Shown: piece after piece, positions 38,978 to 41,229 of the stretch | Layout: every line of letters begins with the position of its first letter | Position numbering within the stretch: position 1 is the stretch's first letter | Origin: Rhodobacterales bacterium 56_14_T64 | GTDB lineage: Bacteria > Pseudomonadota > Alphaproteobacteria > Rhodobacterales > Rhodobacteraceae | Direction: 5' to 3' | NCBI GenBank assembly: GCA_002162795.1 | Contig: MAAY01000081.1 | Coordinates: 1-41,229, forward strand | DNA: 41,229 nt | Position numbers and translations under genes: made by a program | The notes under the pieces: generated by a model | The model's input: only the letters and a program-made list of their open reading frames with translations | What the model was told of the DNA's origin: nothing | The model's database searches: none

Positions 38978-39997
38978 TTACGCGCAAGCAGGTAGTGGAT
39001 GATCTCGACGTTCACTGCCCGGCAGGCGATTGCGCAGCAATCTGCCGAGTATCCGTCTTGAGCAACCCTGATTTTCGCTCCACATCCGTTGATCGCGCAA
39101 TAGTGCGTTTGCAAGGACAAGCAGCTTTCGCATGACCGCCGTGATGGCGACTTTTTTCTCTTTCCCAGCGGCGACGAGCTGATCGTATTTAGCTTTCAAG
39201 TCCGCATTAAACCGGATTGCGACCAGCGCGGGCATGAAGATGGCATGTCGAAGATTTGGGCGCCCGCCCTGTATTCGCGCCTTTCCCTGCCATTTCCCAG
39301 AACTCTGTGACATCGGGGCGTGTCCGGCAAGGCTGGCGACCTGTTTACCATCCAGTTCGCCGATTTCCGGCATATCCACGAGGATTATAAGCGCTGTTGT
39401 TACCCCAACTCCAGGAATGCTGGACAGAATATCCAACCTTTCAGTCATGCGCAGGTCCTGGCGGGCCATCTCCAGCATCGCGGCATCAATCTTAGCGATA
39501 TCGCATTTAATCTGGCGTAGTCGCTTTTCGAGCTGCCGCTTTACGAGAGCGTGCGTCACTGTAGCGTTGCGGGCCTTAGCTGCCGTGCGATCTTTGATAA
39601 GCGCCCGTCGAGCGGCCAGTAAATCTCTCAGATCATACAGGTTTTCTGCGCTGATCGGCTTTGGCATCAGTTGTAAGGCTGCGCCCATCTTTGCCAACAT
39701 CTCGCAATCAACACGATCTGTCTTTGCCAATTTCCCACTGGCTTGGGCAAATCTACGCGCTTGCTTTGGGTTCACTTTGACGAACGGGATGCCTTTGACA
39801 CAAAGCGCCTGTTCTAATTGTCGATGATATGGCCCGGTAGCTTCAAAAATGATCAGCGCTGTTGGGTGCGGTTCAATCCATCTGAACAGCTCCGCAAATC
39901 CTCTTATTCCATTGAGAACTTGCATGTGTTGTCCATCAGCTAAGCGATGAACATCAAGTGTATCTTTGGAAATGTCGATGCCGATGATATAGTTCAT
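38978..39997 (-). CDS. IS110-family transposase (DEDD recombinase)
   Basis: A 339-residue serine/DEDD recombinase. The N-terminal RuvC-like domain shows D8 (GIDISKD), E52 (FEATGPY), D94 and D97 (AKTDRVD), so the DEDD set is complete. The C-terminal Transposase_20 domain has LSSIPGVGVTTA and the catalytic Ser, probably S233, in SQSSGKWQGKARIQGGRP. The start at 39997 (MNYIIGIDISK) was chosen over an open extension to 40237 into the non-coding region. The last 11 codons and the stop lie beyond the element end, in antisense IS3 sequence, so the stop is supplied by the target. Confidence 0.9.
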   Translation of the reverse strand: MNYIIGIDISKDTLDVHRLADGQHMQVLNGIRGFAELFRWIEPHPTALIIFEATGPYHRQLEQALCVKGIPFVKVNPKQARRFAQASGKLAKTDRVDCEMLAKMGAALQLMPKPISAENLYDLRDLLAARRALIKDRTAAKARNATVTHALVKRQLEKRLRQIKCDIAKIDAAMLEMARQDLRMTERLDILSSIPGVGVTTALIILVDMPEIGELDGKQVASLAGHAPMSQSSGKWQGKARIQGGRPNLRHAIFMPALVAIRFNADLKAKYDQLVAAGKEKKVAITAVMRKLLVLANALLRDQRMWSENQGCSRRILGRLLRNRLPGSERRDHPLPACA

Positions 39998-40208
39998 TTG
40001 TCTTTTCCTCACCTTGTCTTGTCGTGCGGGCCCGAAGCCCAAGTATCCGTTCAGGTCATAAGAAAAGACGGGGGCGACCACACTCGGGAACGGTCCACGA
40101 TGACCAAGAGGGGAACGGTCCGACCCCCGCCACTGCCCGTCATAAATGACGGGCCGGGCAGTGGCTCCCTTTTGTCTCAGGAGCCACCAAAAGTCATAAG
40201 ACAAGAGG
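39013..40208 (-). mobile_element. IS110-family insertion sequence, about 1.2 kb
   Basis: The boundaries follow from the interrupted orfA: codon GTT ends at 39012 and codon GGG resumes at 40209, giving about 1196 bp. No inverted terminal repeat or target duplication is visible, as is typical for IS110. The transposase is on the - strand, with a long structured non-coding region upstream of it (39998-40208) and almost none downstream. The end at 39013 starts CACTGCCCGGCAG and is followed by a hairpin (CGGCAG ... CTGCCG). Confidence 0.85.
39998..40208 (-). ncRNA. Candidate bridge RNA of the IS110-family element
   Basis: This is the non-coding segment between the element end and the transposase start, where IS110-group elements such as IS621 encode their bridge RNA. 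It contains an outer stem CGGGGG/CCCCCG (40069-40074 with 40124-40129) enclosing two hairpins with the same GACC/GGTC stem (40076-40095 and 40102-40120). Next come CCACTGCC/GGCAGTGG (40130-40164), GTGGCTCC/GGAGCCAC (40161-40187, exclusive with the previous) and a small GGGC/GCCC (40028-40040). Loop bases 40105-40113 repeat CAAGAGGGG of the element's own end (40202-40210), and 40154-40163 is complementary to the other end (39013-39022). Folding was by eye. Confidence 0.5.
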
Positions 40209-40245
40209 GGGATGTCGACGCTAAACAAGTGGATCACGGCACATC

Positions 40246-40282
40246 CACTGCCCGGCAGTGCATGTTTACATGCATGAGAGGG
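40246..40282. repeat. 37-bp palindromic insertion in the IS3 orfA
   Basis: Compared with the orfA reading frame (GCA CAT C-GA GAT ACT), 37 bases are inserted between C40245 and G40283. The insert starts with CACTGCCCGGCAG, identical to the first 13 bases of the IS110 element end at 39013. It contains two palindromes, CACTGC-CCG-GCAGTG and TGCATG-TTTA-CATGCA, and ends in GAGAGGG, similar to the element's other end. Confidence 0.7.
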
Positions 40283-40422
40283 GAGATACTGACGTGGTGT
40301 CGAAAGAGAATTTAGGCCTCGCCCAAGAGAATAAGCGGGTTCGTCGTGAGAACCGCATTCTCAAGGAGGAGCGGGAAATCCTAAAAAACAATCCCGGGTT
40401 TTGGCCCGCCTGTGCGTGGTAG

Positions 40423-40622
40423 AAACAGCTTGTGTTATGCTACCGCCGTGGAGGGTAGCGGCCGCTTGCTTATTGGTGGCATCGCACCCCGTTAAAAAAC
40501 GTGGTCCATGGGCTCATGCGTACTTGAGAGTGGTGACGCCGTTTCTCTGTGATCCCGATTAGGAAGATGACGATTTGGCATAGCTCAGACCCTTCTGTTG
40601 GCATTTGCCCGGAGGTATTATC
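40423..40622 (+). other. 200-bp non-coding leader of the second IS110-type gene
   Basis: No coding capacity. It joins the decayed IS3 orfA to the second IS110 transposase start. Hairpins seen are GCTACC/GGTAGC around 40440-40460 and GGTG/CACC around 40471-40484. It may contain this element's own left end and guide RNA, but the element boundary could not be placed. Confidence 0.35.
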
Positions 40623-41145
40623 ATGGCCAGAAAGATGACATTCCCACAGCCAACGCTCAAACCGATGAACGGCAATGCGGCAGCGCTCGATATCGGATCA
40701 ACCATGCATATGGCGGCTGTGAACCCTGAGCACAGCGATGAGCCAATCCGGACGTTTGGAACTTTCACCCATGATTTGCACGATTTGGCGGATTGGTTTG
40801 CCAGTTGCGAAGTCACCACTGTGGCGAAGGAAACCACCGGGGTTTATGGATCCCTGCCTATGAAATTCTGGAGCAGCATGGGTTTGAGGTCATTCTGGTA
40901 AATGCACGTTACGCCAAGAACGTGCCGGGGCGCAAAGCCGATGTGAGCGACGCCGCTTGGTTACAGCAGCCTCATTCCCACGGATTATTGCGCGGGAGCC
41001 TTCAGCCTGATGCCGAGATTGCTACGTTGCGGGCCTATCTGCGCCAGCGCGAGCGGTTGGTGGAATACGCAGCGGCTCACATCCAGCATATGCAAAAAAC
41101 CATGATGGAGATGGACCTGCAATTGCACCATGTGGTCTCAGACAT
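40623..41145 (+). pseudogene. Second IS110-family transposase, frameshifted and truncated
   Basis: Start ATG 40623 follows GGAGG by 7 bases. The frame reads MARKMTFPQPTLKPMNG, then ALDIGSTMHMAAV (first Asp) and KETTGVY (Glu), and then shifts near 40848. Restoring one T (GTTTATTGG for GTTTATGG) continues the protein as WIPAYEILEQHGFEVILVNA, then KADVSDAAWLQQ with the last two Asp residues. It runs to HHVVSD, where the IS3-family element cuts it at about 41146. The C-terminal domain with the catalytic Ser is missing. It is a different subgroup from the intact copy at 38978. Not functional. Confidence 0.88.
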
Positions 41146-41229
41146 GGTAATCCCCCCCGGAACTAAGGGGATGCGAAAGTAGAATTTTCTCGGCAAGAAT
41201 GACTGAGGAGATTTTGATGAAGAAGACGA
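41146..41229 (+). mobile_element. Left end of an IS3-family insertion sequence (partial)
   Basis: GGTAATCCCCCC at 41146-41157 is the reverse complement of the IS end at 244-255. It interrupts the second IS110 transposase gene. About 60 bp of leader follow, then TGAGGAG and the start of an open frame at 41217. The rest lies beyond the window. Confidence 0.85.
41217..41229 (+). CDS. IS3-family OrfA, first codons only
   Basis: ATG AAG AAG ACG, encoding MKKT, 6 bases after TGAGGAG. The MKKTR start is usual for OrfA of IS3 elements of the IS407-like type, which fits the OrfB tail at the other end of the window. Only four full codons are inside, so the call depends on the terminal repeat next to it. 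Confidence 0.65.

What the first reader, a model, noticed from the sequence alone, without database searches (positions are those of the whole stretch)
39998..40208. Candidate bridge RNA with guide segments matching both ends of its own IS110 element
The non-coding leader of the IS110 transposase is unusually structured (tandem GACC/GGTC hairpins inside a CGGGGG/CCCCCG stem, plus two strong stems). One loop carries CAAGAGGGG (40105-40113), a repeat of the element end at 40202-40210. Another segment (40154-40163) is the reverse complement of CACTGCCCGG at the opposite end (39013-39022). Read on the transposase strand, one match is identical to the element's top strand and the other complementary to it, so they would pair with opposite DNA strands, as donor guides in known bridge RNAs do. 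This appears to be a bridge RNA of a subgroup whose guide layout I do not recognise. I could not find the target guides.
Basis: partly seen in the sequence, partly recalled or inferred. Interest (0 to 1): 0.78.

Follow-up and report, generated by a model that had tools for sequence, protein, structure and literature searches.

The report
IS110 bridge RNA targeting repeat hairpins
A small jumping gene in a bacterial genome carries a guide RNA of the recently discovered bridge-RNA kind, with all four guide segments readable; they point it at a short hairpin repeat that is scattered through the genome, often inside other jumping genes.

Summary
The element is 39050-40205 (- strand, 1156 bp, core CT). 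Its empty site, seen elsewhere in the same genome, shows that CACTGCCCGG and the AGGGG of CAAGAGGGG belong to the target, a ~40 bp hairpin repeat. The loop with CCCCUCU is the target loop: left target guide 40107-40115, right target guide 40083-40090. The donor guides lie in the 3' loop: left 40042-40050, right 40013-40023. This is the published IS621 layout. In 33 aligned leaders the stems covary. A scan of all columns put the best match to the left flank at the LTG and to the right flank at the RTG; own pairings beat all 20,000 permutations. Donor guide and element end change together in distant relatives. Closest solved protein: IS621. Verdict: a new member of a known kind. Side interest: among 30 sampled hairpins scanned, 16 lie by transposase-type domains and 2 by other known domains; related elements carry right guides fitting different hairpin variants. 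No RNA was measured.

The parts
39050..40205 (-). IS110-group element including one CT core (1156 bp); left end at 40205, right end at 39050
   Evidence: Flanks abut in the empty site on own-genome contig C67 (L002), with CT the shared dinucleotide
40204..40205 (-). left-end core dinucleotide CT
39048..39049 (-). right-end core dinucleotide CT
38981..39997 (-). DEDD transposase, 339 aa; the ORF runs through the right end into the target because the stop seen in relatives is absent here
   Evidence: PF01548 2.2e-20, PF02371 1e-17; IS621 8wt6 1.3e-31; right ends compared
40000..40203 (-). bridge RNA region (span of the folded leader; RNA ends not measured)
   Evidence: 33-leader alignment and covariation
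40130..40164 (-).
   Evidence: 9 of 9 pairs counted show two-sided changes, 93.2% of cells paired; arm does not follow the flanks
40070..40128 (-). target-binding loop
40107..40115 (-). left target guide UUCCCCU + core CU
   Evidence: 6 of 7 non-core matches to own left flank; top columns of the scan
40083..40090 (-). right target guide UUCCCG + core AG
   Evidence: 4 of 6 non-core matches to own right flank; top column of the scan
40000..40069 (-). donor-binding loop
   Evidence: closing helix weaker (66.0% of cells paired)
40042..40050 (-). left donor guide ACGGAUA + core CU
   Evidence: identical to right end ACGGATACT (39048-39056); matched with other sequences in distant relatives
40013..40023 (-). 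right donor guide GACAAGACAAG, complementary to left end CTTGTCTT
   Evidence: GACAAG in 33 of 33 leaders, but leaders were picked with a pattern that asks for GA[C/T/A]AAG there
39009..39056 (+). target hairpin repeat (model R1 match), split by the element; its last 7 bases are element sequence, and the AGAGGGG tail lies at 40204-40210

Best explanation
The leader encodes an IS621-type bridge RNA. Inferred mechanism: the excised circle joins right end to left end; the transposase binds the RNA; the donor loop pairs with GACGGATA-CT-TGTCTTATG at the circle junction; the target loop pairs with CCCCT-CT-CGG at the end of the genomic hairpin repeat; recombination across the CT core inserts the element. 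Shown here: anatomy, empty site, covarying stems, guide-target and guide-donor matches. Inferred: transcription, binding and recombination.
For: Empty site and CT core. IS110 domains and IS621 as nearest solved relative. In 33 leaders, 86.6% of cells in the named structure pair, 23 of 35 pairs have two-sided changes, 0 of 500 shuffles reach the covariation score. Left guide versus own flank 4.77 of 7 against 2.55 for other elements' guides (31 elements); right guide 4.38 of 6 against 2.20 (26 elements); 0 of 20,000 permutations each; with one element per guide, 23 and 15 elements, still 0 of 20,000. Over the columns of the RNA the top hits for left and right flank are these two places. The left donor guide shares a word of 8 or more with the right end in relatives with other ends: ACAGTCGC (L082, L084, L086), ACAGTTGC (L068, L072, L073), besides ACGGATAC (L051, L055, L060 and the near clade). 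In L051, which is not among the 33, left end TCTC for TGTC goes with right donor guide GAGA for GACA (by eye). The joined right and left ends make a -35/-10-like pair 17 bases apart in one register in 23 of 27 elements.
Against: No RNA or activity data. The window's right guide matches only 4 of 6 non-core bases of its present site. The own guide is among the best guides for its target in only 19 of 31 (left) and 18 of 26 (right); related elements share targets and guides. For part of the leaders the left guide needs a one-base shift that I saw in the data first; the same freedom was given to the controls (with the wrong shift gave a weaker result of the same sign). Leaders were picked by patterns for the left end, left donor guide and right donor guide, so the constancy of these three is partly by selection. 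In 9 of 19 loci looked at for donor covariation (L059, L064, L066, L070, L071, L075, L076, L083, L096) no word of 8 linked donor guide and right end, in one (L088) the right end was unclear; by eye L064, L071, L075 and L076 share 7 letters, and L066 and L096 look cut before the right end. This copy has a weak junction -35 and has lost the transposase stop, so it may be inactive.
Confidence: 0.95

Rival explanations
1. One reading: a bridge RNA whose donor guides are 40105-40113 and 40154-40163.
For: Both matches exist; the complementary one is reached by only 2 of 1000 shuffles.
Against: The matched words are largely target sequence, present in the empty site. 40154-40163 is a stem arm with two-sided changes in all 9 pairs counted. 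Arm versus own flanks in 23 elements: 7.00 against 6.78 for others' arms, 567 of 5000 permutations as good.
Confidence: 0.02
2. Structured leader that only regulates transposase expression, as is reported for the ISPpu9 leader.
For: It lies directly upstream of the start codon and is strongly structured; ISPpu9: title and start of abstract seen.
Against: Regulation alone does not predict that two loop segments follow the flanking target sequence of each copy.
Confidence: 0.03
3. The RNA is of the bridge kind but this copy is a dead relic. This is compatible with the best explanation, so its odds overlap with it.
For: One full copy found in the draft genome; stop lost and weak junction -35.
Against: Transposase otherwise open over 339 aa with both domains. 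Repeated copies may be collapsed in a 111-contig draft.
Confidence: 0.45

Closest known systems
IS621 bridge RNA (IS110 group; Durrant et al. 2024, PMC11208160, passages seen)
   Same: Left-end location, target loop and donor loop, four guides with the same strand rules, CT core included in the guides, promoter across the joined ends, insertion into REP-type palindromes; protein relative at 1.3e-31
   Different: Other guide, donor and stem sequences; right target guide often matches beyond the four bases used for IS621 (the paper notes longer ones in some orthologues); the target is another repeat
seekRNA of IS1111/IS110 (Siddiquee et al. 2024, PMC11187229, passages seen)
   Same: Upstream non-coding region as in the IS110 type; short matches to both target strands
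   Different: IS1111 type has the region mostly downstream and subterminal inverted repeats; the region here is upstream
REP-targeting IS110 members such as ISRm19, ISPpu9, ISPpu10, ISPa11 (Tobes and Pareja 2006, PMC1525189, passages seen)
   Same: Target is a repeated palindrome
   Different: Here the palindrome is another hairpin, often found in transposase genes, and the guide pairing is read out; kinship with ISRm19 was not tested

Membership tests
IS110-group bridge RNA element | DEDD transposase with Transposase_20 domain | tested here: met
IS110-group bridge RNA element | Long non-coding left end upstream of the transposase, short right end | tested here: met
   208 bases upstream (39998-40205); the ORF covers the right end
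IS110-group bridge RNA element | Two internal-loop stems supported by covariation | tested here: met
   the donor-loop closing helix is weaker (66.0% of cells)
IS110-group bridge RNA element | LTG and RTG match left bottom and right top target strands with the core | tested here: met
   window copy 6 of 7 and 4 of 6 outside the core
IS110-group bridge RNA element | LDG and RDG match the donor (joined ends) | tested here: met
   near-constant in the 33 leaders, which were partly picked for it
IS110-group bridge RNA element | Shared core dinucleotide, no longer target duplication | tested here: met
   empty site L002
IS110-group bridge RNA element | Promoter formed across the circle junction | tested here: inconclusive
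   23 of 27 elements share the 17-base register, but the window copy scores 7 of 12; integrated ends score 6-7 in 45 of 51
IS110-group bridge RNA element | RNA expressed and bound by the transposase | not testable with these tools
   no RNA data
IS1111 group | Non-coding region downstream of the transposase | tested here: not met
   region is upstream; the ORF covers the right end
IS1111 group | Long subterminal inverted repeats | not tested
   no search for them was run
REP element moved by a RAYT (target hairpin) | A Y1 transposase gene flanked by the repeat | tested here: inconclusive
   4 Y1_Tnp fragment matches in the genome; no hairpin head found in those four loci of 1.7-1.8 kb

The most novel reading that the evidence does not exclude
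In this genus a guide-RNA transposon co-evolves with a mobile hairpin repeat that mainly invades transposase genes: right target guides diversify to follow hairpin variants, and the hairpin in turn inserts into the IS110 leader and gene, sometimes costing it the target loop.
Probability: 0.3. Interest if true: 0.6.

Novelty: new member of a known kind. Interest (0 to 1): 0.36.

Why it matters
It adds a clade of bridge-RNA elements, mainly alphaproteobacterial in the searches made, with four guides readable from sequence and what looks like natural retargeting among close relatives, useful for learning guide rules. The target, a hairpin repeat often found in transposase genes, is a possible safe landing site and an unexplained repeat in its own right.

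Tried and rejected
Rfam at gathering thresholds found nothing in the window. IS1111 grouping was rejected by the place of the non-coding region. A RAYT as mover of the hairpin: only Y1 fragments, no hairpin head in those loci. The first guide test with a wrong one-base register was redone. Folding of 24 joined target sites as evidence that the whole clade prefers palindromes is only suggestive: 7 of 24 at z <= -2 (mean -0.97) against 6 of 59 control stretches (mean -0.32). The hairpin model R1 got only 3 base pairs, so it is mostly a sequence model; 150 candidates per genome were scored, so its counts are lower bounds. A literature search for palindromic repeats and transposases in Rhodobacteraceae (listing with starts of abstracts only) showed nothing to the point. 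A tblastn of plasmids gave 92 records at E <= 1e-50, all under 60% identity; their leaders were not used.

Full report
What is there. The transposase gene runs on the - strand from 39997 and carries DEDD_Tnp_IS110 and Transposase_20 domains. The two matches among solved structures are IS621 (8wt6, E 1.3e-31) and ISCro4 (9t56, E 2.7e-31). The same genome holds an uninterrupted copy of the insertion site on contig C67 (L002). In the transposase direction it reads CCCCT-CT-CGGCAG; the window reads CCCCCT-CT-TGTCTTATG at the left end and GACGGATA-CT-CGGCAG at the right end. The element is therefore 39050-40205 with a CT core. CACTGCCCGG (39013-39022) lies outside the element, and of CAAGAGGGG (40202-40210) only CA and the core AG are element sequence.

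The target. The site is a ~40 bp hairpin repeat, CACTGCCCGGCAG-variable stem-loop-CTGCCGAGAGGGG (26 copies from this and other genomes aligned). It lies in what I read, by recall and without a domain search, as an IS3-type orfA remnant. A model of the repeat gave at least 61 matches in the own genome, 108 and 90 in two same-genus genomes, and 0, 1, 1, 5 and 16 in the other five. The guide-matched word CCCCTCTCGG occurs 24 times in the own genome against 2 for the reversed control word.

The guides. On the RNA, the first internal-loop stem (40070-40128) has CCCCU-CU on its 5' side and CCCG-AG on its 3' side: left and right target guides. The second (40000-40069) has ACGGAUA-CU and GACAAGACAAG: left and right donor guides. 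These strand rules and the inclusion of the core are those described for IS621 (PMC11208160, passages).

Relatives. Transposase relatives came from genome contigs (18 loci), from 33 of 394 family genomes at E <= 1e-40, from 8 of 385 class genomes at E <= 1e-60, own genome counted in both, and from the genus (matches in 4 of 8 genomes). A pattern search in the fetched loci (right donor guide-like and left donor guide-like words, then a left end at the expected distance) gave 41 matches; 7 were dropped for lacking such a left end and 1 as a near-duplicate, leaving 33. The constancy of left end, left donor guide and right donor guide in these 33 is therefore partly by selection; stems and target guides were not selected for. 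RNAalifold found 36 pairs, 21 with two-sided changes; six of the 36 join the left end to the right donor guide and reflect guide-donor complementarity rather than a helix. On a structure named from the window, 86.6% of cells pair against 76.5% in shuffles, and slid versions reach 43.6-55.6%. Naming it from one sequence favours it on cells paired; the two-sided changes (131 cells against 47.5 in shuffles) are the stronger point. One shuffle of 500 reached the number of further pair types.

Guide test. For each leader I compared the left guide with the own left flank (31 of 33; two lack the flank) and the right guide with the own right flank (26 of 33; six have no right end in the locus, one too little flank). 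Own pairings average 4.77 of 7 and 4.38 of 6; other elements' guides 2.55 and 2.20; 0 of 20,000 permutations reached the own value, also with one element per guide (23 and 15 elements). Sliding along the alignment columns, the excess of own over other matches for the left flank is highest at columns 102 and 101 (1.57, 1.52; then 0.93 at 103 and 0.57), for the right flank at column 138 (2.18; next 0.57). Donor guides are nearly constant in the near clade, but in distant relatives right end and left donor guide have changed together: ACAGTCGC in L082, L084 and L086, ACAGTTGC in L068, L072 and L073. Of the 19 loci looked at there, 9 showed a linking word of 8 or more, 9 did not, and L088 was unclear; four of the 9 without share 7 letters by eye.

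Retargeting. Close relatives share the left guide CCCCU-CU or nearly so but differ in the right guide, and this tends to follow the site occupied: CTCGGCAG in L077 (6 of 6 non-core bases), CTCGGGA in L032 (5 of 6), CTCAGGCA in L050 (6 of 6), window only 4 of 6. By eye, window, L032, L050, L077 and L078 sit in the hairpin at the same place, while L098 sits in another palindrome (the automatic hairpin flag in that script had a faulty pattern and marked none). L205, L207 and L208 also have hairpin right flanks, L206 does not.

Where the hairpins lie. I drew 40 loci at random from the listed matches of two genomes (20 of 62 and 20 of 35 listed) and scanned the longest adjacent open frame of 30 of them (the other 10 were not scanned). 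Sixteen gave transposase-type domains: 11 with transposase or integrase names, 5 with only HTH_21 or HTH_38-type helix-turn-helix domains, which I recall as transposase-linked. Two gave other genes (OEP, Peripla_BP_3); 12 gave nothing, which may mean a wrong frame. Some loci overlap or are neighbours, so they are not independent.

State of this copy. Joining right and left ends in a script gives a -35/-10-like pair, mostly TTGACC or TTGATC and TATGNN, 17 bases apart in one register in 23 of 27 elements. In L031 and L033 the -35 overlaps the in-frame transposase stop. The window copy departs there: best score 7 of 12, and its reading frame runs on into the target. Integrated ends score 6-7 in 45 of 51 cases, so this copy may not make a good junction promoter. 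A covariance model of the leader finds two further, partial or divergent leaders in the own genome (C13, C60).

Judgement. It works like, and by the features testable here is, an IS110-group bridge RNA. What could not be tested is expression, binding and recombination. Beyond the family description stand the guide sets of this clade, the apparent switching among hairpin variants, and the hairpin's frequent place in transposase genes; the last two are observations from modest samples.

Noticed in passing
window 40605-41182 +: Fragments of a second, decayed IS110-type transposase: PF01548 on the frame 40793-41182, no domain on 40605-40901.
   Followed up: partly
window 40242-40285 +: A second hairpin repeat of the same family close to the element.
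   Followed up: yes
L107, L109, L112; wider stretches L207, L208, L209: In same-genus genomes the hairpin repeat is inserted in the bridge-RNA leader between target loop and donor loop, at the same place in three loci.
   Followed up: partly
L205 (G777:C1:1589000-1593500) and L206 (G777:C1:357500-362500): Two leaders lack the target loop, apparently by deletion between the CACTGCCCGGCA of the 5' stem and of the inserted hairpin; their transposase frames look broken.
   Followed up: partly
L096 1728-1770: A hairpin of the family sits inside an IS110 transposase gene related to the window's (79% identity over 1-228).
   Followed up: partly
L011, L013, L016: Hairpins occur at what looks like the same codons of IS3-type orfB genes (reading from recall); insertions seem to replace 3-4 bases rather than duplicate a target (by eye).
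   Followed up: no
L033 978-1507: Two bridge-RNA leaders back to back, left ends 95 bases apart; the transposase of the second was not checked.
   Followed up: no
bridge-RNA 5' stem, window 40130-40164: The stem arm equals the hairpin-repeat head (CACTGCCCGG) in the window and in L050 and L098; chance, common origin or exchange is unresolved.
   Followed up: partly
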